Origin: Edaphochlamys debaryana
Taxonomy: Eukaryota; Chlorophyta; Chlorophyceae; Chlamydomonadales
NCBI GenBank assembly: GCA_016858145.1
Contig: JAEHOE010000009.1
Coordinates: 1,178,001-1,242,000, forward strand
DNA length: 64,000 bases
Direction of reading: 5' to 3'
The translations under genes and the position numbers were made by a program. Below are positions 23,101 through 45,835 of this stretch, piece after piece (position 1 is the first letter of the stretch; each line of letters opens with the position of its first letter). Below the pieces are notes generated by a model. The model was not told where the DNA came from. It did not search any database and saw nothing but the letters and a program-made list of their open reading frames with translations.

Positions 23101-23445
23101 CACTCGCGCGAGCCCCGCCAAGTCTACAGGGCTACCCCGGAAACATTGCGGGTTCTCAACGAGACCCCTCCCCCGTCAAACCGCCGGTCTCACGTGCGCC
23201 TCCCGCCTTGGTGGTGCCGCTGCTGGCACGGCGCCGGTCGCTGTCCCGGCCCGTGCTGGCGTCCCTCTGACTTGACGTCCTGCAGCAGAGCCACCCCTGT
23301 CAGCTACTCGGTGGGACTCCGTGAAGCCACGCGGGAGGGATGCGCACCGGACTGGGGACCACCGGCTCTGCTTCGTTGTGCTGCTAGCGATGCGGGTCAG
23401 CACCCTGTCCAGGATACGGTCGCGGTCGTCGCCGTGATTGGCCAT
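14199..23445 (-). CDS. Giant (2,402 aa) disordered protein with central coiled coil
   Basis: Thirteen exons closing in frame: 23445-23363, 23279-23194, 23008-22950, 22877-21378, 21218-21120, 20995-20873, 20747-20697, 20317-20240, 20087-19923, 19724-19598, 19399-19290, 19098-17795, 17622-14199. The start is MANHGDDRDRILDRVLTR; a decayed copy of this exon lies at 28204-28279. Residues 1-560 are Ser/Pro/Ala-rich. About 565-850 form a heptad-rich coiled coil (for example QTEEELRRRLGEADAREAEL). Beyond that the chain is disordered, rich in Gly/Ala/Pro with acidic patches. At the apparent TAA near 17793 a strong donor (gtaagc) splices in phase into the last exon, which merges two large open frames. 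Exons 5-9 are all phase 0, so they could be skipped without frameshift. The architecture resembles centrosomal or cytoskeletal scaffolds, but I recognise no family. Confidence 0.8.
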
Positions 23446-23870
23446 GACGGAAGCGTCAGCTACAAGAAAGGTTGGTCAAAATCCGAAACAGAAGCGCTGC
23501 TCAGCGTCATGGCGCTCCTGGCATGAGCCGCAGTGTGGTAGGCATACTGTTTAGCGAGTTATGACTTAACACTGACTTAACGGCCCCGCAAGTGCATGAT
23601 GAAAGAGCGAACGAGCCGGACAGCCGGCTGGGCAGATAGCTACCCAACTGGAGGCCCCAGGCCAGCCGGCTTCTGGGTGCCAAAAGCATACATACAGCTC
23701 TTCACTATATAACCACCAAGCAACTTTCTAGGAAGAGGGCCAGGAGCCAACCGAGCAGCATGTTGCTTGCGCGTCTGCCTCCCGTGCCGCGCGCGGCGTT
23801 AACCAGCTGCGTGGTGATGTCAACGGGGGACGTGGTGTGCCAGGCAATCCAGCGACGCGGCAAGCCGTGA
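23386..23870. repeat. Source copy of a duplicated gene-start segment
   Basis: Bases 23386-23462 match 28204-28279 at about 70 of 76 positions. Bases 23463-23582 match 28330-28432 with small gaps. Bases 23842-23870 match 28435-28463. The segment spans exon 1 of the coiled-coil gene, the divergent promoter, and the end of Mpv17 exon 1 with its gtgagt donor. Confidence 0.85.
23446..23759. promoter_or_regulatory. Divergent promoter, coiled-coil gene (-) / Mpv17 gene (+)
   Basis: Only 314 bp separate the two ATGs. A TATATAA lies about 55 bp before the Mpv17 ATG (near 23704-23711). Parts of this spacer and both flanking first exons are duplicated, with internal deletion, at 28204-28463 inside the transporter gene. 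Confidence 0.65.
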
Positions 23871-25687: not shown

Positions 25688-27785
25688 GGCCGCTGCTGCT
25701 GCAGCCTTCGGACCCTTGAGCGAGGGGGAGGTCGGGAGGGGAACGGGAAGGGCGGGGAACCTTATTGTGGGCTGGGCTTACACGTACTGGAGGGGGACGC
25801 TGGCTTAATACGTGTTGCATCTGTTGCTCGGGCAATGGAGTGAGTGGGCGATGGAGAGTGGTGCATTCATGGCCTTGAGCGGCGAGGCAGGGAGCCTTTT
25901 GGGAACGAATGGGGGCTAATGCGGCGGTTAAACGATAGGTTGAAGCCTGACGACGTCTTGCAGGCTGCTCGACGGTGAGCTCGTAACTCTTTGAGACATA
26001 CGGACCGAAACTCCCTCGTAGTGCTCGTCATCTCATGCGGACGGGGGTCAAGCAGAGGAAGAAGGCATGTGGACTTGGAGTTTTGAGTGTCGATGCCATG
26101 TGCTGGGCAGCCCGCACTGGTGACTCTCGCTCCTGGGATGTCAGCAGCCAGGGCAACAAGGCCCGAGCACGGTCGCCTGCCCAGGCGGAGACGGGGGCAT
26201 TGGCGGGGAGGACGGGGAAAGGTGTATGGCGGGCTGACAGGGGGACAACCGAAGGCCTTGTCCTCGAACGCACTGGGGCGTGGGTGAGCTGCGAGCCGCA
26301 AATTGCGGAGGTGAACTTGCGCAGGTGGGGCGTTGCTGTGCGGATAGTGAGTGTCCTGCACTCCGGACTGCGGGAGCGCAAAGTGCCCCGCACTGCTGCA
26401 AGAGTGCGTCGCCTGGCCAGGGGCCCACCAGTTTAACTACGAAGGGAAGCGACAGGAGAGCGAGGATGTTGAGGAGGGCGGAGGTACTCGTCGCTCTATC
26501 TGTACGGCCTTCAGTAGTACGGCTGGTCTCAGCTAGCACCTTCCGCCTCCAACCCACGGTGGGACGGTTGCCTTGGCAGCTGTTAATCAGCATAGCAGGT
26601 CCACAGCGGGTAGTGCCGTGTGGTGCTGGATAGACCTGCTGCTGTGTGTTGCAAGGGGGCTATGTCCGCCCGTCCCGCGAAGGTGGGCATTTTGTAGAAA
26701 CGTACACCACTCAGGGGCCCATGCCTGCCCCGCGCCTGGACAACACTGTACAGGCCCAGTCTTGCAACCAGGGTTGGCTCCTTGCTAGCCGTTGCCCTTG
26801 CGCACTACACGTGCCTCCTGCGGGGACTGATCCCCGCGGTCCCGTGAGCAGAGCAATCCATCCAACAGCACACAGCCACAAACCGAGCCGCCATGCTATG
26901 CCCTAAAGCGCATGGCCCACAGAGCCGGCCGAAGGCATGACTGCATGCCCTTGCCTACGGAATGAAACGCTGTGGTTCCGGGCATGGCCGCAACCATAGA
27001 CCACCGCACACGCCACCTCAACACGCACGCTCTGGTCCTCGGCCAGAAGGCGGGAGAACACCCGCCCAGCACCGCACCACCATGGTCGTCCGCGCAGCTC
27101 GCAAACCACACACCAAGCACCCACAAACAAGCCGAGGCCCACTCGGTAGCAAGCGCACGAATTTGCTGGAACCCAAGCGAGGTCACCAGTCATAGCAACG
27201 GAGAAGTCAAATGTAGCAAGCCGCCTGACCCGTGATCTGCTGTCACAGCCAGTCGCTGCTTAGTGCAGCGCTTCTCTGCGGCCCCCTTAACCCTGACTCT
27301 AGCATACCTCGCCAGCTGCCCCCCTAAGCCCTCAAGCTCCGCACCCCAGACCCTTCACCTCCTCTGCTGTATGCCTGCCCACCTGCCCCTCAAACCTGGA
27401 TCCCATCCCCTGCTAGCTAGCCCTCAGCCCCACGCACGCCACAATCCTCGAATTCATCCAACTCCACCGTCCACACCCGGGCGCGGATGCTGCGCCTGAC
27501 CAGCGCCCCGAGCCAGGACGCCGCCCGCCCACAGCACCCGTGTGCCGCCCTTCCGCCCCGCCAGTCCGCCCACGCCCTCGCTCGGTTGCCTGCGAGCTCT
27601 GTCCAGACGCTCGCTGGCACGGCCCGCCACGCGGCGAGCCCCTATCGCCGGAGACGCAGCAGCGACCGCCACCGCCCGGGGCGGGCCCGCGCCCCGAGGA
27701 CCCGCCACGGTCCCCAGGGCCGCGGGCCGCCCCTGCTCTAGGCTTCGCGGTCCTGCTTCTTGGGTGCGTCCCCGGCGGCCGCGTT
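25688..27785. other. 2.1-kb convergent spacer without a supported gene
   Basis: It lies between the 3' ends of the Mpv17 gene (+) and the transporter gene (-). Open frames of up to about 150 codons occur on both strands, but none has splice context, low-complexity algal protein style or a recognisable motif. I see no RNA gene. It should contain both 3' UTRs. Confidence 0.5.
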
Positions 27786-30700
27786 TCATGTGGGCCGCCG
27801 CGGAGACTGCTCGTAGAATGTCCCAGCGCCGACGCTGCAGGCCGGAGAAAGAAAGAGAGGACGAGTCAGGAAGGACGGCGCCTGAGCAGCGTCGGGAGGA
27901 GCAGCAAAGCACGCGACTACAAGAAAGTGTACGCGTACGGCCCTCCTTTCCGTAGCAGGCTCAGGGGTCGAGCCGCCCGCACCCCTTCCCCTGGGAGCCT
28001 TCCCCCCCTCCCTCCAAAGGCGCGCAGCCCCCACCAGACGAGCAGGAAGGCGATGCCCGAGGGCGTGGCGTGTTTGTCCCAGATGAGCACGTTGATGACC
28101 ACAGTGATGATCTGACGGGGGTCGCGGGTGGGTTGGGGTCGGGTTAGGATGAGGTGGGGAGAGGAGGGATTGGAGAGGGCCGGCATGGGGGCCATGCTAC
28201 ACGAGCGATGCGAGTAAGAACCCTGTCCAGGATACGGTCGCGGTCGTTGCTGTGATTGGCTATGACGGAAGCGTCAGCTGCCAAGGCGTTGGACCAGTCT
28301 TCAAGACTGGTGACAGCAGCCCTGGGGACTGCAAGAATGTTGGTCGAAATCCGAAACAGCAGCGTCTGGCGCTCCTAGTTGAGCTGCAGTGTGGTGGGCA
28401 TAGTGTATAGCGAGTTGCTTGCGCTTAACGGCCTAGCGATCCAGCGACGGAGTAAGCCGTGAGTCCCACGGCGTCCCCTCCTCCGTTTCCGCCCGCACCC
28501 CTTCCGTGCCCCACCTTGCACAGGATGCCCACGATGGTGAAGAGCGTGGCCGACACCGTCTCACGCAGCAGGTAGGACGAGTGGCTCATGCACACGCCCA
28601 CCACGCACGACAGCACCAACGGGGTCACCACGGAGCCCGTCCTGCGCCAGGGGGTGCGTGGGGTTTGGGGTCGTGAGGGGTGCGAGGTTTGGGTGTGGGC
28701 CGCTTGTCCCGCAGTCCCCGCCTTCCGTCCTGCCAGCACCGGCAGACTGCCTCGCCCCGGCGCCGCCACGCTTCTACAGCCGTGGACCAGCTTCCCAGAC
28801 ATCGCCTCCCCCCTGGCATCTCTTCCCTTCCTCACCCTCACTACCCCCCCCCCTCACCATGCCGTGGTGGCCAGCACCTTGTGCTCCCCCAGCAGGGGCA
28901 CGGCGAAGGCCAGGGGGATGAGCGCAATGAGGTTGGTGTAGTAGACCTGGGGGTGGGGCGGACGGTGGCAGCAACAGCTAAACGCGCAGCTTCACAGCCG
29001 GGGCAACGTGGCGGACCCTGGACGCAGGTCTGCAGGTGCAGGGAAACAATCCGCTGCTGTTTTGTCCGCCGCCGACCCCGGCCTATGCGGCCCTGCAGCC
29101 GCCCTCCGCCGCCCCCCCTGCCCAACCACACCCGCGCCCAGTTGGTCATCTTGACGGTGTCGCACATGTGCTTCACGTACACGGTGTCGAATGTGAAGAA
29201 GGCGTACCTGGGGAATGCCGGGGTACAATGAGCAGCGCTGATCTATGCAGTCACCTCCGCATACAGCCCCCCGCCCAGCGAGCCGCCTGTCCAGTACAGC
29301 AACATGACCCCCCATCCCTCCCCCCCTATCCGCTCCGGCCCCCCCCCCGGCCCCTCCCCCGGCCCCTCCCCCCCCCACCACAGCAGCAGCCAGTAGTAGG
29401 CGTCGATCTTGTAGTCAGCATCCACCATCACGTACTGTACGGCACACGTACGGCAGTGAGTCACGGGTCTGTCGTGCAGCCCAGGCCACTGCCCTCACGC
29501 CACAACGCTGCTTATGTCCGGGCCCTCACGCATATGCGCTGGCCGGAACGGAGGCCTGCAATTGTCCTGCCCCTCTGTCTGCCCCCCTCCCCCCCCACTC
29601 ACCCCCACCGACCCCGCCAGCAGCACCACCAGGCTCAGCCATGAGCGCAGGGAGGGCAGCATGCGGCCCAGGAAGAAGTAGTCGCACAGGGACAGCACCT
29701 GGGGGGGAGGGGGGGGAAGAGGAGGGGGGTCCGACACAGCGGAATTGGCAGTTGTGGAATCCCCGGCCTCAAGATATGGGACCCCGGTACAGACACGTAT
29801 ATGGCAAGCTAGGTGGTGTCCAGCGCGTGAGGTCCCACAAAGTAAAGAGAGGCCGGGGGTAAGGCGACGAGGAGTGCACCATCGGCATGCAAGGGTCATG
29901 TCATGAGCCAAAGCCCATGCGCCCGTTTCATTCTTGCGCACCCGGCTACACAAGTGAGCGACCAGCTTCCCTAGACACGTAACCAGGGGTCCTTTGCGCT
30001 CGCGACCAGAATCTTGATATACATATTAGTCCACCAGCAGTTATGGCGCCCTGTGCCCTGCTGAAGCGTGGCAATGCGCTACCAGCGTCGCGTGGTGGCG
30101 TGCCCGTGCCCCACCCGGGGGGCGGGGGACCCACCAGGGGCGTGGAGGACCTGAAGGTGATGAAGGTCTCCACGTTGGCGTGCTGCAGCACCTTGATGTT
30201 GGCAAAGATGGTGCCCAGAAAGCTGGGGGAGGGGGTAGGGAGGAGAGAGGGGCGGGGCCTGTGAGCTAACCACCTCCTAGCATGCCTCGCAGGGCGTCGG
30301 ACGCCACAGAGGGTGTCCCCACGGAGTGTCCCACATCGGCGGGGCCCGTCCGCCGTGTCGCAGCCTCGGGCTCCACCCGGGCCGCCAGCCTGCTGCCACC
30401 AGAGCACAGACAGCTCCGCGCCTTGCCGCGCGCTAGGCGCTCTTGGACCCATGCCCAGGCACCGGCCTCACCCGACCACCACCCGGGGCCCCATCGGTCC
30501 GCGCCCCACCTCAGCCCCTGAGTCCATGCTCCGCCGACCACAACCTGAGCTCCCACGCTCACGATAGCACCCAAGCCACCGCTGGCCCACCACCGCCGGA
30601 CGACCCCCCCCCAGCCCCCGCGCCTCACCCGACCACCACCCATATGAACTTGCGCAGCTTGGCCCACTCCACCGCCTCCGCCGACACCAGCCCCGCGTGG

Positions 30701-31448
30701 TTGCCCACCGCCACGAACAGCGTGGCGGTGAGCAGCTGCACGCACAGCACCGAGGTGGGGCAGGGCAGCTGGTGGATGGCCACCTTGTTGATCACCAGCT
30801 GGGGGGCAGGCGGGGAGGGTGGGGTGGAGGGTGGCACGCGTTGGCGGGGGTAAGGAGCCCTCGCAAGGCCAGGTACTGCCAGGCCAGCAGCAGTCCCGGC
30901 GTCCAGACAGGCGCTACGGGCCCGCTAGGGAAAAGGTTCGCCCGCCCCGCGGGCCCTCCCCACCATCGTGCTACTACAGAGAGCGTAGTAGCTGATGGCT
31001 AGCGTGGCGAGACCTGTTGCAGAGGGGAGCGGGGTTTGCGTTGTGAAGGGCTCCCTGGCACAGACGGGGCGGAGCTGGCCGGAACTGGCGGGTGTTTGGG
31101 CCTGGCGGCTTGGGCACCCCTCCCCAGCCCTCCCCCCCCGATAGTTGCTTATACGAATACGCCAGTACATATAGACCTCCGGGCCTGGCGTATGCATCCA
31201 GCATCAACATAAGGCTCCTTGGAGCCGTGGGAGGGGCGCACAAGCAGTGCGGCAACTGGATGGATGCTGCAACCCCGCTTCAAGGGCTCACCCATTCCCA
31301 TGAAGATTGGCTTGCGCTTATCCACTTTGACGGGTTTGTCTGATGCAGAGTCCACGTTTGTTGCACTGGCCTTCTGCCCCTCTACATCGCCCATGGTCGA
31401 AAGAAGCGCTTGCTGCTCCTCATCCTTCTGCTGTTCCGCAGACGTCAT
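27786..31448 (-). CDS. Nucleotide-sugar transporter, GDP-fucose type (GONST4/GFT1-like)
   Basis: Eleven exons, 344 residues: 31448-31292, 31013-30964, 30798-30629, 30222-30135, 29698-29603, 29434-29379, 29207-29132, 28946-28858, 28641-28515, 28111-28035, 27834-27786; all phases fit. After a polar 50-residue N-terminus come about ten membrane helices of the drug/metabolite-transporter fold. Family blocks: YYALCSSTMVLVINKVAIHQ, HANVETFITFRSSTPL, DTVYVKHMCDTVKMTNWAR, and TVVINVLIWDKHATPSG, very close to plant Golgi GDP-fucose transporters. The likely role is to import GDP-L-fucose (or GDP-mannose) into the Golgi lumen for glycan and wall polymer synthesis. Introns 4 and 9 hold copies of promoters and first-exon pieces from neighbouring genes, in plus orientation, antisense to this gene. 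It is head-to-head with the plastid Rossmann gene. Confidence 0.93.
28204..28463. repeat. Decayed copy of the coiled-coil/Mpv17 gene-start segment in transporter intron 9
   Basis: Compared with the source at 23386-23870, this copy keeps the first coding block (about 92% identical), the upstream block and the last bases of Mpv17 exon 1 with its gtgagt donor. It lacks most of the central spacer. The coiled-coil gene's start codon has become ATA (bases gctat for gccat). A roughly 50-bp insert at 28280-28329 contains a perfect 9-bp hairpin, accagtctt-c-aagactggt. Confidence 0.85.
29728..30097. repeat. Near-identical copy of the SpoVS/VTE4 promoter and VTE4 first-exon start in transporter intron 4
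   Basis: About 370 bp matches 42002-42372 with only a handful of differences (for example gacacag/gatacag). The copy runs from the SpoVS-side upstream region through the intact VTE4 ATG (30042) and about 55 bp of the VTE4 transit-peptide exon, then diverges abruptly. It lies wholly in the intron between exons 5 and 4 of the transporter, in antisense orientation to it. Confidence 0.95.
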
Positions 31449-31743
31449 TTGTCCCTATTACGATTACTTGTATCTCCTACGGTGCAGGCGGCGCCCAGAG
31501 TGGCCCGGGCTGTTGGCGCGAAAGTAACAAGCAGGTCGCGCCCCGTATGTAGCTACCGCCTGCTATCTCCTTTGTCTTAGGAGTCAAGCCTGTGCACAGC
31601 AAATGCGTCTGGGGCGGAGGGGGGGGAGTCGAACGCCGGAACGCGGGGATGCACATGCATGAGCTGCAAGTGCACGACGACTGCGCCACGACGAGTGGGC
31701 TTATTCTTACAGCCTCATACCCAGATATCACGTTCTGTCAAGA
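31449..31743. promoter_or_regulatory. Divergent promoter, transporter (-) / plastid Rossmann gene (+)
   Basis: A 295-bp spacer separates the two start codons and must contain both 5' UTRs and core promoters. A G-rich stretch lies at about 31614-31627. No TATA-like element is obvious. Confidence 0.55.
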
Positions 31744-34658
31744 ATGCGCGTCTCAGCCTTTCAGCAATGCCTGCGTCCGCGCCAGGCGGTGCCTGCCTCA
31801 TCCCCTCGGCCATGCCCGCGAGTGACCACCCGCCGCTGCGTCGCGGCCCGCTGCCAAGCCAGCAGCGCTAGCGGAGTGGAGTCAAGTCAGCCCCAGGCAA
31901 GCATTCGGGGGCTCGCCGGGGGCCTTCCGTTCCCCCTGGGGGACACAACACAACGCATACCCCTGCACGCACCCTGCCACCCCCGCAGGCCCCCGCGCGG
32001 CTGCCCGCCTCCACTGATGCGGGCAGGCGCGGTATGCTGCGGCTGCTGCTGGGCGCCGCGGGCGTCGCTGGCGGCCTGGGGCTGCGGCTGACGGGCGGGG
32101 CTCTGGAGGCCCTGGCCGCCGAGGGCGTGACCACGGTGAGGAGCACGCCCGAATCGCTTGACGCGGGGAGCAGGTGCCTTTGGACTTTCTGTCAGACTGC
32201 GTGCACTCCACCAAGGATGAGCTGCCTTGCTGGGCCTAGATGCCGGCTGTCCCTGTCCTCCCTCCGCTCGAGGCCAGCCAGTGCGGTCCAGGGCCCCTGC
32301 GATGCCGCCAGGGGCGGCGGTCCTCCGACAGAGCGCCCCGCGAGCCACGTGTCCATGGTGATGGTCGGCTGCCCCCCCCCCCTGCAGGTCTTTGTGGCCG
32401 GTGCCACGGGCAACACGGGCCGGCGGGTGGTGCAGCAGCTGAGGGCGGCAGGCTTCGCCGTGCGAGCGGGCGTGCGGGTGGGTGGTGGGTGGGTGGGCCT
32501 GGTAACACGTACCGTAGGGTGCCGGTGCCGTGCGGGACTTGACCAGGCCTTGCATGACGAGTGCCGTTGATCCGCTCTCCCCACCTCTCACCCTCACTCT
32601 TCCTCCCCGCATACCCCGCCCCCCCCCCCGGTGCCCCGCAGTCCACCGCCAAGGCCCTGTCCCTGGGCTTCGGGGCGGACTCCGGCATTAGCGTGGTGGA
32701 GGCGGACGTGACCAAGGGCAAGGAGTGAGGGGGGGGGGGGGGGTTCGGGAAAGAATTTGCACACGGCGTGATGGGTCACCAGCGGCCTTTCCCTTGCCCC
32801 CCCACACGGCAAACCCTCTCTCCCCTGTCGATCGCTGCCCCCACCAACAACCTATCCCTGTTTTATTGCCGGCACCAACGGCCCATCTTGCCCGCCCGCC
32901 CGTCTCGCCCTCTCTGACCTGCCTTCCCTGCCCGCGCCGCGCACCCGCCATCCTGCCCCCTCCACCGTCCTCCTCCCCTCCTCCCCTCCCCCAGCTTCCT
33001 GGCTGAGGCGCTGGGCGGGGCGCAGGTGGTGGTGGTCGCCACCGGGGGGGACCCGGACAAGGTCGACCAGCAGGTGGGGGGGGGGCAGAGGGGGAGCTAC
33101 GGGTGGAGCAGGGCGCTACGGGTGTGGTTGTGGTCCCGATGCCGGCCTTACCGAGGCCAACCACCCCCTACGGACCATGCCGCCCCCCTGCCCCTGGGCT
33201 CGACGGCCGCGTTTCCCGCTCGAGAAATAGCCCCTGCCCCCCGTTGCTTTCACCCCCCCCCCCCCAGGGCACCATCGACCTGGTGGACGCGGCCGTGTCC
33301 CGGGGCGTGTCCAAGTTCGTGCTGGTCAGCAGCCTGCTCACCAACGCAGAGGCGGTGAGGGGGGGGAGGCGGGGGTAAGGGGTGAAGTGTCGGGAGGTGA
33401 GCGCAGGGGAAGAGGTGTTTGCGGGGCGTGGACCGGGGCACCTGCCTCGCCGTCATTCCCTCCGCGCCGTGAGTTGATGCCAACTACCCCCGTTTTACCG
33501 CCACCCCATCCCCCACCCCCCGCCGCCCCGCCGCCCCGCCCAGGTGGGTCAGAAGGCCAACCCCAACTACATCTTCCTGCAGGTGTGGGGGGGGGACGGG
33601 GGAGGCGGGCAGAGGGTGGGATGGCAAGCGATAGCTTGGATCCACCGATGGAGCTTGTACCGACGGGGCTGGGGCTAAAGCAATGAAGGAGCCGCCCTGA
33701 AGCCCACCCGCCTCCTCTCTGCTCCCCGCTATCTTCCCTCTGGACCCCAGCTGTTCGGCGGTGGCGTGCTGGGCAAGAAGCTGGTGGCGGAGAAGTACCT
33801 CCGCGCCAGCGGCCTCAACTACACCATCATCCGGTGGGGAGGGGGTGGTGGGGTGGGGTGGGGGTGGGATTGGGTTGGCCCGGTAGGCGTGATAAGTTGG
33901 GCGCGGCCGAGCACGGCGGCGACGGTGTCCGGCGGGGCGGGTACAGCAGCGCGGGCAAAGGGCTGCCGGCACGCCCCAACCCTGGCGACCGCCTTCCCGC
34001 TGCCCCCCTGGCCACCGTCCCGCCCCCCCCCCGCCCCCCGCGCCTGCAGCCCCGGCGGCCTGTCCAACGACCCCGAGGCCGACGTGGGCAATGTGGTGCT
34101 GCGGGGGGAGGACTCGCTGTTCGCTCTGGACACCGACCCGGGGCGGCGCATCAGCAGGGACACCGTGGCGGCGGTGGCGGTGCAGGTGGGGGTGGGGCGG
34201 GTGGGGCGGGTGCGGGCGGCGGAGGGTGGATGCTAAGCAGAATGTCGAGACAGGTTGGTGGTTGCATCAGGTGGAGACGTGTGGGGATGAGGGGCAGCGG
34301 GTTCGTGAGAGGAGGGGGCGGGGATGTTGGGGAGGCGGTCAGGCGTGGCCCTGGCGAGGTGTTGAAAGGGAGCCAGCGCGCCGGGTGTGGGGGCCGCGGG
34401 TGGTGGTGACGCCCTCGACGCCCGGCAGCCGCATGCCTCCAGCCACGGCGCACGCAGCTGGCCCTTCGCCCCTCACGGCCAGCGCCCCTGTGTACCTCTC
34501 GTCGTTTCCCATCCCTCCCGCTCCCCCCCCCCCACACACTCCCTCCCCCCCCCCAGGCCGTGCTGCAGCCGGGGGCCTCGAAGGACAGGGTGGTGGAGAT
34601 CGTGGCCTCGCCCTCGGCGCCCAAGCTGCCGGTCGACCAGTGGTTCACGGGACTGTGA
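31744..34658 (+). CDS. Plastid NAD(P)-binding Rossmann protein (atypical SDR, At2g34460-like)
   Basis: Ten exons, 332 residues: 31744-31896, 31989-32135, 32388-32477, 32642-32724, 32995-33073, 33268-33354, 33544-33582, 33751-33833, 34050-34185, 34557-34658. The Arg/Ser/Ala-rich first 50 residues (MRVSAFQQCLRPRQ...) look like a chloroplast transit peptide. The nucleotide-binding loop is VFVAGATGNTGRRV (101-114). Later blocks are DLVDAAVSRGVSKFVLVSS, AEKYLRASGLNYTIIRPGG and VVEIVASPSAP, collinear with plant plastid/plastoglobule proteins such as the Arabidopsis At2g34460 product and the TIC62 Rossmann domain. The substrate is unknown. Exon 1 appears to end at a GC donor (CAG/gcaagc); an in-phase GT donor 15 bases upstream is less likely. 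The hydrophobic segment MLRLLLGAAGVAGGLG after the transit peptide could aid membrane or globule association. Confidence 0.9.
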
Positions 34659-35228
34659 GCGGGCGGAGCTGTCCATGCTGGACGGGTTCGGCCCGTCGGC
34701 CACGACTTGTGCGAGAGTACGGCTTTGAGCAGCCGTGAGGGGGGGTTTGCCGGCAGATACCGGACCGTGTGGACATGGTGGATACTGCGTGCAGGAGTTT
34801 ATACTCGGGAGGACGGGATCCTTTTGGCTTCTGCGTGTTGCAAGTTCGCCGTGTGTGTAAGGGCAGAAGAACCGTTGATGAGCCACGGCGTGTGCATTCA
34901 GCCAGAGGTGGGGGGGTACAGGGCCCAAGGGCAGCTCAAGAAGCAGCCGCCGCCTATCTAACGGGGGCAGGGGAGGGGGGGGGGGGGGGGGTGCAGGGGG
35001 GAGCCACGCGGGAGTTCAGTGATTTCAGTCGAAGAGGTGGGCAGCACGAGAGACAGTTGTCTTTAGAGGGAACAGCAGAGAAGGGGGCGAAGCAAGCAGC
35101 CATGAAGAAACCGCGGGATCCAGGCGTCTTAGTGCGACGGCGAGCTCGAGGTGCCGCCTCCATCTCTTTATCGTTTATTCTCAGCATACAAATTCCTTAC
35201 TGTAAAGCGCACCAAGGAGCATGTAGCG
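34659..35228. other. Spacer between Rossmann and GT92 genes
   Basis: It holds the 3' UTR of the upstream gene and the promoter of the GT92 gene. A long G homopolymer run (about 34975-34992) is the only distinctive feature; its length is probably unreliable in assembly. Confidence 0.5.
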
Positions 35229-38200
35229 ATGCGCACTTTGCTGCTGCTGCTTCTGGCGCTGCTCGCGCTGGAATGCGCTGCCCTGCCCGGACTGATACGT
35301 AGTGGAGACTTGGGTATCACACGATGTACACTGGAGGTCAGCACGGGCGATGCGTTCTGTCGCGGCAACAGCTGCGCGAATACGCTCTTCCGCGGCTTGG
35401 CCCGGACAGCGGCGACGCGGCCCATACGTCCATATACGCCTGAGGAGTAACAGAGGCATCGGAGAGGCATCTGGCGCGTGCCCCAAAACTCGCGGTGCAC
35501 CTCCCATCACCTGCCACCCCTCCATCCGTGCCACCCGCACGTTGTCCCCGCACCGCTCGCAGGGCGTCCTCATGGGCTCCCCCGTGCTGCTGCATATATG
35601 GCTGACGGCATGTTCGGAAGACAACGACAAGCTGGTCGTTTCGGGCATGCTATTCATGGCGGACCCGGCGAAGACGGTGGAGACAACCCAGATGGAGCAG
35701 GTGCCTGGGGAAGGAGATAGCAGGACTGGGGGGGATGGGACTTCCTTCCTTCATTCCTTCTTTCAGCGTGGGGACTGGGGACAGCCTGGGGACTGGGGAA
35801 TGCGTTCCATCCGCTTACGGGGGGATGGGGGGGCTGGGGACTGGGGACTTCCCGGGGACTGACAGTGGCCCCGACTGTGGCCCCGACCCGCAGGTGGAGC
35901 CCGCCAAGGACAAGTGGGCGGACAAGCCAGACGCACTCGTGCTGAGGTGGGGAAGCTGGTCACAGATTGAGGGCTCTTCGCGCCAGTTCTGCGGTGACAG
36001 GGGCAAAGGCGGAAAGCCCTGCACGGGACGCACGGGACCTACCCAGCGTTGTGCCTCACCGCCCCAAACCCTCAGAAGTGGGCACACGGGCAAGCGGTGG
36101 CCCCTGGACATAACCTTTGCCCATCCCTGGACCAATTCTCACCGGCGGAGGTGGGATCCCGTGTCGGTGGGCTTGGCAGGAGGGCAGGGAGCTCGAAGGG
36201 CATCCGCCGGATACCAAGCCCCAGGAGGACCTCGCTGGGGGACACCTTGGCCCAGGCTTGGCTGCGGGCTTTGTGGGTTATACCTTTAAGGGGCGCCCCC
36301 TTCGCACGGGCCTCATAATCTCGTTCCCAATGCGAGTTGCTCTTGTCCTTCATCCATCCCCTACTCCCCTCATTTAACCACCTGCAGATACACGGGGCGC
36401 ATCAGCGGCACCCTCACGCTCGAGCCTCTGGATGCGCGGCTGATGGAGTTCCAGGTGCTGGCGGGGCCCCGCTTCCACACCTTCTGCACCTTCCACGCCG
36501 CCGACTCTGTCAGCCCCCCCTGGCCCGACCCCTCCGCCCCGGAGGCGCCACAGCCGCGGCCGCAGCTTGCAACGGCCATGGGGTTAGAGGGCCTGCGGCG
36601 CTGCGAGTGGAAGGAGGGCAAGAAGAAGGACCGGACGTCGGTGCGTGTCGGCCGCGGGGCGAGGGTGTTGGCGGCGTGGGCGAGACCGGCAGGATCGGCA
36701 GTCGGCGCATGGACCGGGTTTGGGACAGGGGTCTGGGCACCGTGAAAGCAGCCCACACCGAGTGTGACGGGGAGCGGGGGAGCCATGGTCGTGCCTCGCA
36801 GCCTTCCGCCTCCCCCCCCCCCGACCGAGCGCCCTCCCGCCCGCTCGGCCGCGCCCACGCCCCGCCCCTCCAACCGCCAACCGCCAACCGCCACCCCGCA
36901 GTACATGATCATCTCGCCGTACTTCGACATGCCCGCGGGCGAGTACGTCACCCTGCTGGAGCAGCACATGCGCTTCCACGCGCACCTGGGCGTGCGGCGG
37001 TACCTGGTCTACGTGGAGGGGGGCGCGGCGGCGCTGGCGGCGGAGCCCCGCGTGCAGGTGGGGCGTGTGGAACTGGGTAATGGAGAGTGGGCGCCGTGAA
37101 GGAGGCCGGCGGCGAAGGCTGGGACCCGCCTGGCGACAGGTGCAGCCTGGAGGGGCCTCCGCTGGCTCTGGGGGCTCAGGGTCGGGTGTGTGCGCCGGGC
37201 TCGTCAGTACCTCCAGTCGGGGAGGCAGCCTGCGGCAGCGTGCGGCTCTTTGCGCTTTGGCAGAGGTTGGCAGACTCCGGCCTCGCACCTGCGTGCACCT
37301 TACGCGCCTGACCCCTTGTCCGACTGCCCCTGCCGCAGGGCATGATTGCCGCGGGGCGGCTGCGTGTGGTGGTGTGGGAGGACCTGCCGCACTACTTTGA
37401 GGGCAACTCGACCACGAGGCACCCCTACGCCTCGCAGGTGGGGGCATCGGGCCGGGCTAAGGGCCCCACTAGCCCCAGTGGTGCACGCCGCACTCATCCA
37501 CAGGGACCACAACTCCCAGGCGACGACCGGCACCTCTTGCTTTGGTGGACCCCTGACCGGTGGCCGAAGCCTGACGCGACTGGGCCCCCACGCCTCCTCC
37601 CGTGTTTCGGCCGGACTTGCGCCCATGCGCTGCTGCCAGCATCGCACGCACCGCACATGCTTGCCGACATGCCCCCTCCACGGCTTTCGAGCGGCTTCCG
37701 CTGGAGCCAGCACCCGCCCACGCATACGCTCCAGTGCAGCCCCTGCATGCCCCCCCCCCCGGCCTCCCCCCAGTCCCTGACCTACAACCATGCGCTGCTG
37801 GCGCTGTGGCATGAGAACGCCCTGGCCGCCATTGCTGACGTGGACGAGTACCTGCTGACCGTCAAGCAGGGCGGCCTGGCCGATGTGGGTTGGGGCGCGG
37901 CTGGTCGGGGGCCCGGAGGTGACCGTCGGCCGACTGCGCCTGTTGGAGATATTGTGATGATCAGCAGAGCCTGGGGGTGGGGCAACCTTTAGGCGGGGCC
38001 AGGGTGTTCCGAGGTGACGCGAGTTGGCCATGTGGGTCGGGGCTCGAGGGGGGCAGAACCGTGGCAGGGGAGGCAGCAAGGCTCTTTGCGGGCTGGACCC
38101 CCAGGCCAGCCCACACGAGTGGTGCGTGCAGTTGCCTGTGAGCTCTGAACCCAATTGGCCTTGCCTGCCCACTCCAGCGATGGCCATGCTGCAGATTGGT

Positions 38201-39493
38201 GGGCAGCCTTCCTATGACTGCTACCCCTGCTGTCGCCTGGCAGGTCCCCACGGTCCCGTTTCCTCCCCCTTCCCTGACCGCAGGTCATGTACGAGTGCGA
38301 CGAGAAGGGCAGCGGCTCGCCCGCCTCGCTGCAGGTCAACCGCCGCGTGGGGTTCTGCACCGGCTGCGTGCAGGTGGGGGTTCCAGTTGGGGCAGGGGCA
38401 GAGGGAAGGAGGAGTGGGGGGTTGCGCTGGTTGCGGAGGAGGGGAGTGGAATGGGTGTCGCGGCACTTGCGGGCGCGGAGTCTGGCCCTGGGAAGAGGGA
38501 AGCCGAAGGAGACGTTCAGTGGGCATGCTCAAGCAGCCTGCGCCCCTGCTCCGCCCGCCCATGACGGCACTCAGGTGATCTACAACCGGGAGAACGACGT
38601 GTCATTCCACGAGAAGCTGGACCGCCCGGCACTCAACAAGGCCCACCCGCTGGAGCGGGCGCTGTGGCTCAACGGCAGCGCCGCTATCACGGATGAAGTA
38701 CGGCAGGCGGCGCCCTTTGGCATCGTACCGCACCCGGTGGCCATGTACAACGTCAGGTAAGGGTTGGGCGGCGGACGCAAGGCACCAGGGAAGGATTGGA
38801 AACTTCAGGTTACAGCAACGGTTCTCGCTCAGTCTCCCCAGAGTGAAGGGCTCCCTTCCTCCCTCCCCGCCATGTATACCTCAGCACTGGCGACACCGAG
38901 TTCAAATCAATTGTGGTCGTACACCAGATCTCAACCACCAACCCCCACATCGCCTACCCCGTGGAGGGCAAGCGCGGCACGGGCTGCTCCTCGCGCAAGG
39001 CGTACTGGCTCCACATCCGCAGCCAGGTGCGGCACCGGGTCCCTTGCTGAGGCGGGCTTAGGAGGAGCTCACGTGCAACCAAGCACGCCGGTATGCGGCT
39101 CCCGAAGAGCAAGTGGGCCCCGCCCAACGGTCCGTTGGGCAGAGCAGGGGCCCGGTTCGGTGCGTAAATTGCCCATGCCTGCACTCGTGCGCTGGCGGGA
39201 GTGGGATGGCGCCAGCTTGATCCCAGGCCCTGGCTAGTGCTGCCAGGCTGAGGCTAAACCATCCCTCAGCTTCCGGGCGCTGGCCTAAGCTTTGCCGCGT
39301 GGCCTCCCCCCCCCTCCCCCAGGTCGCTATGCGGCTGCGGAGCAGCTTTACGGACGTGCGGGACGTACGGGCTGACGTCATGTGGGTCGTACGGGAGATG
39401 GAGGACGCTGCGAAGGGGGAGCAGGACGGCGGGAGCAAGAAGGGCGAGGACCGGCGGTTACGAGTGGGCACATCCCGAGTGGGGCGCGCATAG
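35229..39493 (+). CDS. Glycosyltransferase family 92-like protein
   Basis: Eleven exons, 500 residues: 35229-35336, 35563-35700, 35894-35946, 36388-36640, 36902-37057, 37339-37437, 37774-37884, 38284-38373, 38575-38756, 38885-39026, 39323-39493. The N-terminus (MRTLLLLLLALLALECAALP) is a signal peptide or short signal-anchor. The catalytic region begins at YMIISPYFDMPAGEY (about 185). It includes LLEQHMRFHAHLGVRRYLVY, where GT92/DUF23 enzymes have their conserved E-x2-LGV-x-h-Y block. The metal-binding DxD-like motif is AIADVDEYLL (about 288-297). GT92 enzymes transfer galactose or related sugars to glycans in the Golgi. Together with the nucleotide-sugar transporter it suggests a secretory glycan role; donor and acceptor are unknown. 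The exon 1 donor (gtcagc) is inferred from phase. Confidence 0.82.
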
Positions 39494-40761
39494 CAAGCCT
39501 AGAGCACTGATCGAGCGGAAGGACTGATTTGGTCGCGCGGGGGCGAGACGGGGGGCTACAGTTAGGCTGGGACCGAATGCGAGGCAGCGGGACGCTGAGC
39601 AGCGAGCAGCGTGGCAGGGTTTTGCAGGGCAGGGCCAAGGGCAGGGAAGACGGCTCCTGTCGGCATTTCGGCCCTCGGCACGACTGCGTCGGATGCATGT
39701 AGTAGATGCGTATCAACAGGCAGGTCTAGACGGGGCGCGCTAAGAGTCGGTACGAGGATAGAGAGTGGGGCGCGAGTTGTGGGCTCAGTTGGCTTGGGTA
39801 GAACAGGAGGCTTGGTCGGCGTTTGGCGGTGCCTGCATGCCGGGGATACCGGTAGATTGACAAGGGGGTCCAGCACGGATCCAGGTCACCATCCTGGCTA
39901 ACGAATGGGACAAGGCGGAGACGGGGAATGTGCGCAAACGTCATCCCTGGGCGCTGCATTGAGAGCCTGCTATACGCCGGTTCAGACAGAGTCGTGACTG
40001 TGGGCGTCTGTCATAATGCACCTGATGGCACGGGGGCTACATGCTCCCACCGATGTTACACCACAGTATCCTCCGACCGCTGGGGCAAGCCCGTCCGTGT
40101 GGTCGCACCCTTCCCTGTGGGCATCCTGTCTACCACCTAAAGCCCATGGTGCCACCGATGGCAGAATCCCTCCCTGCAAGCTCTACATCCCATGTCTATA
40201 CACCCCCCCCACACCACTCGCCCCCGGCTTACTCGAGCAGTCCTTCACACCACTCGCCCCATTCCCGAGCACTAAACCTCCGCCTATTTCGTCGCCCACT
40301 TGCCCGCATGCCACCTTGCGCATGCTAGTAAGCGCGCTGAGCCTCGTTCCTGATCGCTGCTGCTTCGGCCACGGGCAGTTGTGTCTGTACCGCTGGCCTT
40401 CGCATGCCCCCCATCCATGCGCAGTTATCACACCCACGCATCCAGTTAATCACCGTAGCCTTATCCCGCCCTACGTTACTGCCCTTCCTACGAATGAGCT
40501 GAGCTGTTCCCCCCCCAGCTCGCTCAGCCCTACCGCTCACCCCCAGTCCCGATTCACCCAGTGCCGATGCAACCGTTCTGGGCTTAAGCCCTCGTCACTT
40601 CAGCATGCCGACGCCACTGCCGCCTGCCGTCAGACCCACAACAACAAACGTACTCGGTCGAACGCACTGCCTCCTCTGCGGGGCCTCCAGTGAGCCTCCT
40701 CCTCGGAGCTCGTCGTCATCGCTCCCGCTTGTCCCCAGCGGGTCCCCGGCGGGTCAGGGTT
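39494..40761. other. 1.3-kb convergent spacer
   Basis: It lies between the 3' ends of the GT92 gene (+) and the SpoVS gene (-). The right half is C-rich, with the phrase cacaccactcgcccc at about 40210 and 40248. No coding frame or RNA gene is supported. Confidence 0.5.
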
Positions 40762-41943
40762 CTACAATGCCTCCGCAATCAGGGAGAACTTCATCGAGGT
40801 CATGATCTGTCCGTGCTTCTCCACCTGCGGCGAACACACATGAGCCAACGAGGGACGAGGTCAGAAAAGGGGGCGTGGTGGCGCCCCAGTGTACGGGATA
40901 GCGACATGAGCCCCGTCCTCCACAGCCTTGTGCGAGGCCCCCGCTGACCTACCCCTCCCGCTGTGAGCAAGATGAGGCAGGCAGCCCAGTGGTGAAGTGT
41001 CGGGGCCAAGAACCCCGTCCAGCATGCGTGAGCCCGCGCACCAGCCCGGGCCCACCTTCTCGAACTCTGGCTCCACGCGGATGTCGTAGTTGTCCTGCTC
41101 CAGGAACAGCCGCGCGTTCCCGATGGCCAGCACGGCGTTGGTCACGGCGTCCACCCCGATGGCCAGCAGCGAGATTTTCAGCTGCTCCCGAATTTTGCCC
41201 GCGATGGCACCCGCCACGGGCACGATCTTTGATCCGGAGGCCACGGTCAGGACCACGTCATCGCCGTGCGCCTGCGGCCGTGCCCGCTCCTTGGAGACGT
41301 AGAAGGCGATCAGGGGTTTCGTGCGGTCCGTGTGGCGGAAGGCCGGCTGGAAGCTCAGCTGCAGGTTCTCCTTGCTGAGGTCGTAGCGGGCGATGGCGAT
41401 GGCCTTGACGGCCTGGTTGATGGATTGCCCGCCGATGGTCAGGAGCGCGGGGGGATCGCCCACGCGGCATGCCTCGCAGATGCGGTGCGCTATGTCCTTT
41501 GCGTCCTGCCCGCCGCCAACTTTGATAGCGTTGTGCGGCGTGGCAGTGTCATCTAGCGTCTCGCTGATGCGCTGGTTCTGGTTCTGCTGGCGGTCGCCAC
41601 CACCGCGACCGCCACCCCCGTCGCGTCCGCCGTAGGGCTGCACGCGCTGGCCTGCTCCGCCTCCACCGCGACCACGAGGTGCCTTTCCGCCGTAGCCTTG
41701 CGCCTCTATGAGGTCGTCCAGCGAGGTGTTAAGGCGCCCGTCTGCAACGGACCGGCACATGGCGATGGACTCGGCGACGGGTTATCGCCACGCAGAGGCA
41801 ACGCGAGCAAGCCGGCGCGAAAAATACATCGGGAGATAGGAGACATCCTGGCGTCGGCAAGGCGCGCGGAAGGGAACGCCGTGGCGAGGCTCTCTGGCGC
41901 ACGCAACAGCTGCCCATAACAGGTCGGCCGACTCACCCGCCAT
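40762..41943 (-). CDS. Tandem SpoVS-domain protein with UAP56-binding-like motif and RGG tract
   Basis: Three coding exons, 251 residues: 41943-41937 (only ATGGCGG), 41741-41056, 40824-40762. Residues 7-17 (NTSLDDLIEAQ) resemble the UAP56-binding motif of ALYREF-type mRNA export factors (SLDDIIK). A Gly/Arg tract (22-56) follows. Two SpoVS domains come next: 73-140, with the diagnostic INQAVKAIAIAR and FQPAF; and 164-231, with VAGAIAGKIREQLK, AIGVDAVTNAVLAIGNAR and VEPEF. SpoVS is a small Alba-like fold known from sporulating bacteria and scattered eukaryotes; its function is poorly defined, with nucleic-acid binding suspected. Inferred: an RNA-binding or mRNP-associated protein. The 7-bp first coding exon was chosen because ATGGCGG/gtgagt gives exact phase and avoids an ATG lying inside the acceptor region. 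Confidence 0.88.
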
Positions 41944-42317
41944 TCGCCGCACACGGATCCGGCTCTACCAGATCTAGCGTAGAGCGCGCGGCGGGGCCGT
42001 CGGTCCGATACAGCGGAATTGGCAGTTGTGGAATGCCCGGCCCAAAGATATGGGACCCCGGTACAGACACGTATATGGCAAGCTAGGTGGTGTCCAGCGC
42101 GTGAGGTCCCACAAAGTAAAGAGAGGCCGGGGGTAAGGCGACGAGGAGTGCACCATCGGCATGCAAGGGTCATGTCATGAGCCAAAGCCCATGCGCCCGT
42201 TTCATTCTTGCGCACCCGGCTACACAAGTGAGCGACCAGCTTCCCTAGACACGTAACCGGGGGGTCCTTTGCGCTCGCGACCAGAATCTTGATATACATA
42301 TTAGTCCACCAGCAGTT
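41944..42317. promoter_or_regulatory. Divergent promoter, SpoVS gene (-) / VTE4 (+)
   Basis: A 374-bp spacer lies between start codons. All but the 58 bp nearest the SpoVS ATG is duplicated nearly unchanged at 29728-30041 in the transporter gene. No strong TATA-like element; ATATACATATTAG at about 42293-42305 lies 13-25 bp before the VTE4 ATG. Confidence 0.65.
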
Positions 42318-42372
42318 ATGGCGCCCTGTGCCCTGCTGAAGCGTGGCAATGCGCTACCAGCGTCGCGTGGTG
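42002..42372. repeat. Source copy of the SpoVS/VTE4 promoter duplication
   Basis: This 371-bp segment includes the promoter spacer and the first 55 bp of VTE4 coding sequence. Its near-identical partner is 29728-30097. Because VTE4 continues in frame from here into a full gene, this copy is the original. Confidence 0.93.
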
Positions 42373-45300
42373 CTGCGCGTGTGAGCATTGGAAGGAGGAG
42401 ATGCGTGATGGTCCGTGCAGGGCCCTTCGAAACGCTTGTCAAGCCCCTCACGACGCTTGGCAAGGTGAGTCAAGTGCATGAGCCATGGTTGCGTCAGCGG
42501 GTTCTCGTATGACGGCGAGGGGAGGGGCGGGAGGGCATCGGGGCCGCTGGAGCGGGTTCGAGGCAGGCGCAAGCGCCACGCCCTGCATTCCCGGGCGCCC
42601 CCCTCACCCTGGCAACGCCAGATCCTTTTGCGACCCTAGACCATCCCCGTATTTGTCGGGGCCGAGGGAGGCTGGGTGCGCGGGTCCACAGCACGCACCT
42701 GCCGAGTCAGCCTGCTGGCCCCAGACGCCCTTCTCATGCCGTGCGTGTTGGTGCCCCCAGATGGATGACCTCAAGTCCGGCATTGCCAACTTCTACGACG
42801 AAAGCTCGGAGCTGTGGGAGAACATGTGGGGGGAGCACATGCACCACGGTGGGACAGGGGCTTGGAGGGGGGGCGTGCCGGGACGGCGGGAAGGCATTGC
42901 ACAGAGAAAGCGTCAGGGCCTGCGTGGACGACGGCACACGGCAGGGGACGAGGTGGTGGCATGGCGTACTCGGTGTGATACCCCCGGCAGCTCGACAGGG
43001 GTGCCAGCCGTACGACTCGCCCCGCTGACCCCCTGCCGCCTGCCCCCGACCCTGCTGCTCCCTTCTGCACGCAGGCTTCTACCCCAAGGGCGGCCCGCGC
43101 CGCACGCACCAGGAGGCGCAGGAGGACATGATCGAGCAGACGCTGCAGGCAGGGCAGGGGGGGGGAGGGGCGGGGTGGGGTCAGGGGGGGGTGCGGGGAG
43201 GGCTGGGGTGCGGGGAGGGCTGGGGAGGGTCGGGGAGAGAAGGCGGGTGAGGGAAGGTAACCCTCGAGGACGGGGAGACGGCGTGGTGCAGAGGAGGACT
43301 GAATGGAAGAGGGAGCAGGGGCATGGGGGGAGAGGGGAGTGAGCAGGGGGTCTAGGGACCAGGGCAGGGGATGCAGGGCGGGGCCTCAGGAGGAGGTCTC
43401 AGCCGCGCTCCGCGCTAGGGAGGCGCAGTAGGGAGTGGTACATGCAGCGAGGGGCCGTCACAAAGGGGACAAGTGGTCCTGGGCTGGTAAAATCAGACCC
43501 AGGGGGCTGATGTTTGAGCCCCTTCGGTTAGCTGCTCTGATCTACAGTGTACAGAGTGGTTCTTGACTTAAAACTGCCCCACTGCTGCCCTAACCGCGCC
43601 CCAACTGCGCATGCCTCTCCTTGACTCCTCCTGTGTTGGCCCCCCCGGGATGCTGCCCGCCTGCCCCCCCCCCTACCCACAGGTGGCAGGCGTCACCAAG
43701 GTCCAGAACGTGAGTCAGCTGACGGACGGGTGGGCTGGGAAACCGCAGGACCGCACGCCGGGGCGTGACAGGAGGAGCATGGGTGTTCGTCTGATGGGAC
43801 TCAAGACACCCTCGTCAGCCTGACCCTACTCCTCCGCACCTGGACTGTGTAGCCCACTCGAGCTTGGCACATGGCAGCCCCCCCGCGTACATGCCTGCGC
43901 CTCAACAGTATGTCCGCGATTCTATGCGTCCAGCCTCCACCAAGAGCGCGCCCCTAAACCTGGATGCACCCCTCCCCGCCCCCTCCGTTCTTCCCTCGCT
44001 ACCCCCCCCCCCCGCACCCAGATGGTGGACGTGGGCTGCGGCATCGGCGGCAGCTCCCGCTACATCGCACGCAAGTTCGGGTGCACGTCTCGGGGCATCA
44101 CCCTCAGCCCCAAGCAGGCGAGCGGGCACCGTGGGGTCCGAGATGGGGGGCCGCTTCGATGGGGGGCGAAGACATCCTGACTCGGCAGAAGCGAAGGAGG
44201 CTTGGCAGGTGCTGTACTCCCAACCGTAGACCTCTGGCGATCTTCCGGACTCATGGGGACCTCGGACAGGTGGCTGCGTGAGGGCGGGTCGTGTCCCCAT
44301 AACGTAACGGTTTATGTTGTGGCGTGATGGAGTTGGCGCCGTCCCTGCTCCTTTGCCGTCCCTGCAGGCAGCGCGTGCCAACGCCCTAAGCGCGGAGCAG
44401 GGCTTTGGCGACCGCCTGAGCTTCCAGGTGCGCAGGGGAAGGGACGGCTAGGGAGCGTGGTAGACTGGTGAAGCTGAAAAGCCTTGCCCGCCCGCCCGCC
44501 CCCCGCCTCGACCCACAAGCTCACTGCCCTGCCGATAAACGGTGCCATCAAGCAAGCCTGATCGCCTCGCCCGCCTGCCCCTTGCGGCCCGGTCCGTGGC
44601 GCGGCCCCGACCGCCACCCCAAACCTCGCCCCTGCCTCGTATACACGTGCGGGCCCCTTCAGGTCGGGGACGCCCTGGCTCAGCCCTTCAAGGACGGCTC
44701 CTTCGACCTGGTCTGGAGCATGGAGAGCGGGGAGCACATGCCGGACAAAAGGTGCCTCAGGGCCCTCGGCTACGCGGGAATTGCAATCGCGTGGAGAGCT
44801 GAACTGGGGGCTCGTCCCTGACGGTCGTGCTCCCGGCCGGTAGCCCCTGCCCTTGACCGTGAAGTGCACGCGCACTCCGCCTCGCTGCACTCAACGGCCA
44901 CCTGCACCCTCGCCCCGCGCAGGCAGTTTGTGTCGGAGCTGTGCCGCGTGTGCGCACCGGGGGGGAAGATCATCGTGGTGACGTGGTGCCACCGCGTGCT
45001 CGCCCCCGGGGAGTCGCTCAAGCCGGACGAGGTGGGCCGGCGGCGCGCATGCTCATGGGGGCAGGGCCGCTGGCAGCTGCGGCAATTCATACCGCACACC
45101 TTTTGTACCAGTCAATCGGGCGGGGTTTTGGGGCCACGCTCCGACTCAGCCCCCTCAGCTGCTCTCCTCCGGTCCCGGCCCACCCCTGACCCTCGGGGTG
45201 TTGGTGTGCAGGTGGCACACCCAGTAGATGGCGCTCTCGCTCAATTCCACCCCTTCTGGAGGCGGTCTGCGCTGTAGCCATCGCATCCTGACCTCTCCGA

Positions 45301-45835
45301 CCTGCACCCCGCCCCACCGTTAGGTGTCCCTGCTGGACCGCATCTGCGAGGCCTACTACCTGCCCGCCTGGTGCTCGGTGGCGGACTACCAGAAGCTGTT
45401 CGGTGGGTGCGGGCGGGGGGCGGGGCGGCGTAAGCACGCAGCCCAAGGTCGCGCGCTGTGAATGCGCGTGTGGACGGATTCATGGCCCAGGGTCGAGGGA
45501 GTCGGCAGGTTTTGCAGCAGCAGCAGGAGCCCTGCCGACCTCAACTGCACAACCTGCCTTCGTTCGCATACTCTTGCCCCGTGCCCCCTGCCTCCCTGAC
45601 CTTCTCTCCGACAGAGGAGAAGGGTATCGTGGACATCAAGACACGGGACTGGTCGGAGGAGGTGTCTCCCTTTTGGGGCGCTGTCATCGCGACCGCGCTG
45701 ACCACGGAGGGCCTGGCGGGCCTTGTCAAGGCGGGGTGGACCACCATCAAGGGCGCCCTGGTCATGCCGCTCATGGCAGAGGGCTTCCGCCGGGGTCTCA
45801 TCAAGTTTGTGCTCATCACGGGGCGCAAGGGCTAA
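42318..45835 (+). CDS. VTE4: Gamma-tocopherol C-methyltransferase, plastid
   Basis: Ten exons, 329 residues: 42318-42464, 42761-42848, 43075-43148, 43683-43709, 44022-44117, 44368-44427, 44663-44751, 44923-45031, 45324-45402, 45615-45835. Exon 1 encodes a 49-residue Arg/Ala-rich chloroplast transit peptide. The enzyme methylates gamma- to alpha-tocopherol (and delta to beta) using S-adenosylmethionine. Family blocks: [23 protein letters not shown] motif [14 protein letters not shown] (114-126), [37 protein letters not shown] and [13 protein letters not shown]. Introns 3 and 5 need GC donors (gcaggg, gcgagc), fixed by phase and by collinearity with plant VTE4. Exon 4 is 27 bp. The promoter and first 18 codons are duplicated in the transporter intron 4. 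Confidence 0.95.

What the first reader, a model, noticed from the sequence alone, without database searches (positions are those of the whole stretch)
29728..30097. A working-looking bidirectional promoter and transit-peptide start of VTE4 copied into an intron of a sugar-nucleotide transporter
Seen directly: about 370 bp at 29728-30097 is nearly identical to 42002-42372, the SpoVS/VTE4 divergent promoter plus the VTE4 ATG and 55 bp of coding sequence. The copy sits inside transporter intron 4, antisense to it, with the ATG intact. Inference: it could drive antisense RNA across transporter exons 1-4 or donate a plastid-targeting exon to chimeric transcripts.
Basis: partly seen in the sequence, partly recalled or inferred. 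Interest (0 to 1): 0.75.

Follow-up and report, generated by a model that had tools for sequence, protein, structure and literature searches.

The report
Gene promoter copied into neighbour's intron
In a green alga, a 370-base piece carrying most of the shared promoter region of two neighbouring genes was recently copied into an intron of a transporter gene 12,000 bases away, most likely as a chance patch during DNA repair; nothing yet shows that the copy is active.

Summary
29728-30097 matches 42002-42372 at 365 of 371 columns, same orientation, and these are the only two matches found in the 142 Mb genome, so it is not a dispersed repeat. The organism is Edaphochlamys debaryana: the three encoded proteins match HYH03_003462, _003465 and _003466. 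The copy lies in intron 4 of a TPT/EamA-family transporter gene, antisense to it. The donor is the SpoVS/VTE4 divergent intergenic region: 316 of 374 bp between the two ATGs plus 55 bp from the VTE4 ATG. Four paralogous transporter genes have intron 4 at the same place, 138-180 bp long, without the copy; the host intron minus the copy is 66 bp. No target-site duplication, terminal inverted repeat or poly(A) was seen. This fits a break-repair patch (filler DNA / class 2 templated sequence insertion), probably with loss of native intron. A second short, two-copy, nearly identical duplicate lies in the same 262 kb. Promoter activity of the copy is untested; a neutral intron passenger is most likely. 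The plastid-targeting idea is weak: 18 codons, no VTE4 splice donor.

The parts
29728..30097 (+). 370-bp copy of the SpoVS/VTE4 divergent intergenic region plus first 55 bp from the VTE4 ATG
   Evidence: 365/371 identity to 42002-42372; only 2 matches in the genome
42002..42372 (+). donor segment at the SpoVS/VTE4 locus
   Evidence: 316 bp lie between the two ATGs, 55 bp from the VTE4 ATG
30043..30097 (+). copied VTE4 start: ATG, 18 codons and one base; the frame continues into flanking intron and antisense of exon 4, 73 codons to stop
   Evidence: translation
29699..30134 (-). intron 4 of the transporter gene (436 bp; 66 bp without the copy)
   Evidence: gene model identical to HYH03_003462; four paralogues have the same intron at 138-180 bp
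27786..31448 (-). transporter gene, 11 coding exons, TPT/EamA family, HYH03_003462
42318..45835 (+). VTE4-like (tocopherol O-methyltransferase) gene, 10 coding exons, HYH03_003466 (deposited start is M31)
40762..41943 (-). SpoVS-domain gene, HYH03_003465, 3 coding exons; ATG at 41943 (stop codon read by eye)
   Evidence: model identical to the deposited 251-aa protein; PF04232 E 5.7e-34
41944..42317 (.). 374-bp divergent intergenic region (bidirectional promoter by position only); TATA-like words at 42072 and 42293

Best explanation
A recent local templated insertion. A break in the native intron 4 of the transporter gene was repaired by non-homologous or polymerase-theta-type end joining that used a 370-bp patch copied from the SpoVS/VTE4 intergenic region 12 kb away, probably with loss of some 70-115 bp of native intron. 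The intron kept its own splice sites and pyrimidine tract, so splicing is expected to be unaffected and the copy is most likely a neutral passenger. Shown: donor, recipient, orientation, number of matches, ends, paralogous introns without the copy. Inferred: break, patch mechanism, loss of intron sequence, neutrality.
For: Two matches only in 141.9 Mb, while a dispersed repeat at 46255-46418 gave 39 other matches with the same tool. Donor polarity: VTE4 continues from the copied ATG into a full gene, while in the intron the frame is cut after 18 codons. SpoVS and VTE4 carry consecutive locus tags in Volvox reticuliferus (Vretimale_1888/1889) and Chlamydomonas sp. UWO 241 (FOA52_010987/010988), so that pairing is older than the copy. 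Recipient: four in-genome paralogues have intron 4 at the same site, 180, 179, 138 and 151 bp, none with the copy; DNA similarity to two of them runs from exon 5 to 29725 and 29729, i.e. to the left end of the copy. The flanks share no repeat longer than a G-run, the ends match as inverted repeats at 5 of 20 positions; by eye junction overlaps are 1-2 bp of G. Class 2 templated insertions are described with no TSD, no poly(A), microdeletion and microhomology (PMC5110952, passages); [quoted passage not shown] A second two-copy 449-bp duplicate, 448/449 identical, inverted, about 9 kb apart, lies some 53-63 kb downstream of the copy.
Against: At 370 bp it is longer than the maize filler sizes quoted in PMC2686159 (1-131 bp). 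The pre-insertion allele was not seen, so break and deletion are inferred. Four of 6 differing columns fall in the first 43 (simulated P about 0.004 for either end, a test chosen after seeing the data), which a simple copy followed by uniform mutation does not predict. The SpoVS/VTE4 pairing is not universal: in Gonium the two carry tags of different scaffolds (GPECTOR_16g546 and GPECTOR_17g883).
Confidence: 0.7

Rival explanations
1. Tandem duplication of the roughly 12-kb block from intron 4 to VTE4, followed by a deletion that left only the promoter piece next to the intron.
For: The right junction (VTE4 codon 18 joined to intron 4) is what a tandem duplication would give; larger direct duplicates 12-16 kb apart lie in the same 262 kb.
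Against: Needs two events and two chance breakpoints; the search with 27000-34000 showed no other match to C9 sequence of the intervening block beside the copy.
Confidence: 0.13
2. RNA-derived patch: a reverse-transcribed transcript of the promoter region was inserted.
For: Templated insertions in human cells are reported as RNA-derived (PMC5110952 passages).
Against: The segment is mostly the region between the ATGs of two divergent genes, so one ordinary mRNA is not expected to cover it; no poly(A), no splice junction inside.
Confidence: 0.07
3. Capture by a DNA transposon or Helitron.
For: Such elements are known to carry gene pieces (general knowledge; a MULE example is in PMC2686159, passages).
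Against: Only 2 matches in the genome; no target-site duplication, no terminal inverted repeats at the ends of the copy.
Confidence: 0.04
4. Assembly or polishing artefact.
For: The assembly was error-corrected with Illumina reads; short reads can be misplaced between near-identical copies and could have altered the 6 differences.
Against: Copies differ, flanks are unrelated, PacBio reads from a 15-50 kb size-selected library can span both.
Confidence: 0.03
5. The copy is an active bidirectional promoter retained for function: antisense RNA over exons 4-1 and a 5'-truncated sense transcript of exons 5-11. (This concerns effect, not origin, so it does not compete with the rows above.)
For: 316 of 374 bp between the ATGs are present; the last 112 alignment columns, with the TATA-like word nearest VTE4 and the ATG, are identical.
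Against: No expression data; identity is explained by recency; incomplete transit peptide and no donor. A look for the poly(A) word TGTAA (recalled) found none from 30043 to 32500 on the plus strand nor from 29728 to 27500 on the minus strand, but this says little, since none was found just past the transporter's own stop either.
Confidence: 0.1

Closest known systems
Class 2 templated sequence insertions (human TSIPs, PMC5110952, passages)
   Same: unique sequence templated from elsewhere, donor intact, no TSD, no poly(A)
   Different: here the donor is only 12 kb away, the organism is a green alga, and the event is seen in one assembly, not as a polymorphism
NHEJ filler DNA in plants (maize p2/p1, PMC2686159, passages)
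   Same: patch copied from a nearby site into an intron, native sequence probably lost
   Different: 370 bp here against 1-131 bp quoted for maize; one donor, not a mosaic
Spontaneous insertions and duplications in Chlamydomonas reinhardtii mutation-accumulation lines (summarised in PMC10910851, passage; the primary paper PMC9977147 is not held)
   Same: 125 insertions averaging 263 bp among 238 structural mutations in 8 lines of a related alga
   Different: the source of those insertions was not stated in the passage I saw
Introner elements (recalled)
   Same: inserted sequence within introns
   Different: introners are multi-copy and carry splice sites (recalled); here two matches only, and the intron is present in four paralogues

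Membership tests
Class 2 templated sequence insertion / filler DNA | insert copied from a unique donor that stays intact | tested here: met
Class 2 templated sequence insertion / filler DNA | no target-site duplication and no poly(A) | tested here: met
   (25 bp outside and 6 bp inside each end); only a 6-base G-run is shared by the flanks
Class 2 templated sequence insertion / filler DNA | microdeletion at the recipient site | tested here: inconclusive
   66 bp of native intron against 138-180 bp in four paralogues; direct ancestor not available
Class 2 templated sequence insertion / filler DNA | junction microhomology or non-templated bases | tested here: inconclusive
   by eye 1-2 bp of G at the junctions, in a G-run, no more than chance would give (flanks printed)
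Dispersed repeat / transposable element | many copies with common ends | tested here: not met
   2 matches in the genome
DNA transposon | terminal inverted repeats and target-site duplication | tested here: not met
   5 of 20 end matches, no TSD
Introner element | creates a new intron, multi-copy (definition recalled) | tested here: not met
   intron 4 present in four paralogues; 2 matches
Bidirectional promoter | divergent transcription starts within the segment | not testable with these tools
   no transcript data were available

The most novel reading that the evidence does not exclude
The repair patch delivered a working bidirectional promoter into an intron in one step, creating an antisense transcript over transporter exons 4-1 and an alternative sense transcript of exons 5-11, i.e. 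promoter birth by break repair caught at 98% identity.
Probability: 0.1. Interest if true: 0.6.

Novelty: new member of a known kind. Interest (0 to 1): 0.27.

Why it matters
It is a clean, recent case of most of a promoter region moved as a probable repair patch into an intron, with an intact donor next door and four paralogous introns as controls. If the copy is transcribed it would be a natural test of how promoters and antisense transcripts are born; if not, it shows how introns absorb such patches without harm.

Tried and rejected
Intron gain through the insert: rejected, intron 4 is in four paralogues at the same site. Dispersed repeat: rejected. Start of VTE4 at M31, as deposited: left open; of the eleven VTE4 proteins whose N-termini I printed (of 120 listed), eight start well upstream and three at or next to this Met, one of the three being the window's own deposit. 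Exact 40-base pattern in the prokaryote genome collection: nothing, as expected for an algal sequence. Bacterial-type promoter/terminator scan of 29600-30200: nothing, and not applicable to a eukaryote. Rfam over 29500-46600 and tRNA scan of the window: nothing. Dating: 5 substitutions in 370 bp at C. incerta rates of 7.6e-10 to 11.56e-10 (PMC8383909 passages) gives about 6-9 million generations; only an order of magnitude, since the clustered differences may be one event. A background survey on other contigs could not be done; the survey rests on one 262-kb stretch around the window, which also holds large tandem and inverted duplicates, so it may be richer than average. Literature: ten searches; no listed title or abstract concerned this locus, but the one aimed at it was loose (3,325 papers, 10 listed), so no claim is made that it is not in print.

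Full report
Check of the observation. The window stretch 29728-30097 aligns to 42002-42372 over 371 columns with 365 identities, five substitutions and one gap, in the same orientation, and the alignment does not extend on either side. A search of the window's own assembly (141,892,200 bases, 502 contigs) with the copy returned two matches, the copy itself and the donor, 12,274 bp apart start to start on the same contig; both candidates of the first look were scored. A search with 7,001 bp around the copy gave only the same cross-match for this segment (28 of 28 candidates scored). The search with 6,501 bp around the donor also did, but scored only 40 of 516 candidates; there a stretch at 46255-46418 took up 39 of the 42 matches, which shows that the tool does find dispersed repeats when they exist.

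Identity of the organism and genes. The transporter model (11 exons, 31448 to 27786, minus strand, ten introns GT-AG) is identical to HYH03_003462 of Edaphochlamys debaryana; Pfam gives TPT (2.3e-10) and EamA (1.7e-7). Its substrate is not tested; some relatives are named GDP-mannose transporter. The VTE4 model (10 exons, 42318-45835, two of its nine introns with GC donors) is 100% identical over 91% to HYH03_003466, whose start is M31 of my model; Pfam's best match is Methyltransf_11, and named relatives include tocopherol O-methyltransferase of Pleodorina starrii. The SpoVS-domain gene was first modelled with a wrong start; guided by the first residues of the deposited protein I found a 7-base first coding exon, and the corrected model equals HYH03_003465 exactly, with ATG at 41943. 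The published E. debaryana assembly has 142.14 Mb, 527 contigs and 67.1% GC (PMC8226300 passages), close to the 141.9 Mb and 502 contigs here and the window's 67.2% GC.

What was copied. The two ATGs are 374 bp apart; the copied segment takes the 316 bp nearest VTE4 and 55 bp from the VTE4 ATG, and leaves out the 58 bp next to the SpoVS ATG. It therefore holds most of a divergent promoter region, if that stretch is a promoter, which rests on position. SpoVS and VTE4 have consecutive locus tags in Volvox reticuliferus and in Chlamydomonas sp. UWO 241; the transporter's closest relative has a tag next to VTE4 in Astrephomene (Agub_g6567/6568), near VTE4 in Volvox carteri (VOLCADRAFT_105162/105165) and near SpoVS in Pleodorina (PLESTB_000576000/000576200). 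Against a universal linkage, in Gonium the three carry tags of three scaffolds (GPECTOR_16g546, 17g883, 30g226). Orientation in those species was not checked. Of the eleven VTE4 proteins whose N-termini I printed, eight start well upstream of the deposited Met and three at or next to it; this favours the upstream ATG as the true start but does not settle it.

The recipient. Intron 4 is 436 bp; without the copy 66 bp remain, the other nine introns of the gene being 165-406 bp. Four paralogous genes in the same genome have an intron at the same place, 180, 179, 138 and 151 bp (distance printed minus 15 bp of exon), none with the copy. DNA similarity to two paralogues on contig C269 runs from exon 5 into the intron as far as 29725 and 29729, the left edge of the copy; on the other side similarity to paralogues stops at 30132, within three bases of the exon 4 boundary. 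So the intron is old, the insert is new, and some native sequence was probably replaced.

Mechanism. The flanks share no repeat beyond a G-run, the ends match as inverted repeats at 5 of 20 positions, and by eye the junction overlaps are 1-2 bases in G-rich sequence and there is no poly(A) (flanks). This is the signature given for class 2 templated sequence insertions (PMC5110952, passages) and for plant filler DNA, often copied from near the break (PMC2686159, passages). In related C. reinhardtii, mutation-accumulation lines held 125 insertions averaging 263 bp and 41 duplications among 238 structural mutations in 8 lines (PMC10910851, passage). In the 262 kb around the window there were 49 self-similar pairs at E up to 1e-10, of which 19 have at least 100 bp and 85% identity; eight of the 19 belong to three larger direct blocks. 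Outside those blocks two of the 19 reach 95% identity: the finding itself and a 449-bp inverted pair with one difference, about 9 kb apart, which again has two matches in the genome. Short proximal duplicates are therefore not unique here; a rate cannot be given from one stretch.

Age. Five substitutions in 370 bp give a Jukes-Cantor distance of 0.0136, some 6-9 million generations at C. incerta rates. That is within the roughly 2% genome-wide diversity quoted for C. reinhardtii (PMC8226300 passage), so the copy could still be polymorphic. Four of the six differing columns lie in the first 43 at the SpoVS side, which may mean one error-prone end, a later event, or polishing error.

Function. 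From the copied ATG a frame of 73 codons runs antisense into exon 4; only 18 codons are VTE4's and the VTE4 exon-1 donor is outside the copy. A chimeric plastid-targeted product is thus unlikely. Antisense RNA is possible by orientation; so is a 5'-truncated sense transcript from the SpoVS-facing side. Neither is shown. The default is a neutral passenger.

Verdict.

Noticed in passing
window 28204-28416 (transporter intron 9) and 23386-23560: A second, older local copy: parts of intron 9 match a stretch 5 kb away at 92% over 76 bp and 78% over 93 bp, with no other match in the genome. The same gene may thus hold two patches from neighbouring DNA; which of the two places is the source was not settled.
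   Followed up: partly
L012:8918-9366 (C9:1260918-1261366) and C9:1269984-1270432, outside the window: 449-bp inverted duplicate, 448/449 identical, two matches in the genome. Two of its six frames have no stop, so whether it is coding is open.
   Followed up: partly
window 46255-46418: Dispersed repeat downstream of VTE4 with at least 39 other matches at 80-89% identity (40 of 516 candidates scored); no Rfam or tRNA match.
   Followed up: no
C9:1112068-1130109 and C9:1157969-1179470 (the latter reaches window 1-1470): Large direct duplicates 12-16 kb apart at 89-97% identity, upstream of and into the window.
   Followed up: no
window 42318-42464: The deposited VTE4 protein HYH03_003466 starts at M31 and may lack its transit peptide; C. 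schloesseri HYH02_001154 also starts next to this Met.
   Followed up: partly
window 43149 and 44118: VTE4 introns 3 and 5 in my model begin with GC instead of GT.
   Followed up: no
G000 contig C269 46019-48377 (+) and 52000-49857 (-): Two paralogues of the transporter lie tail to tail as an inverted pair.
   Followed up: no
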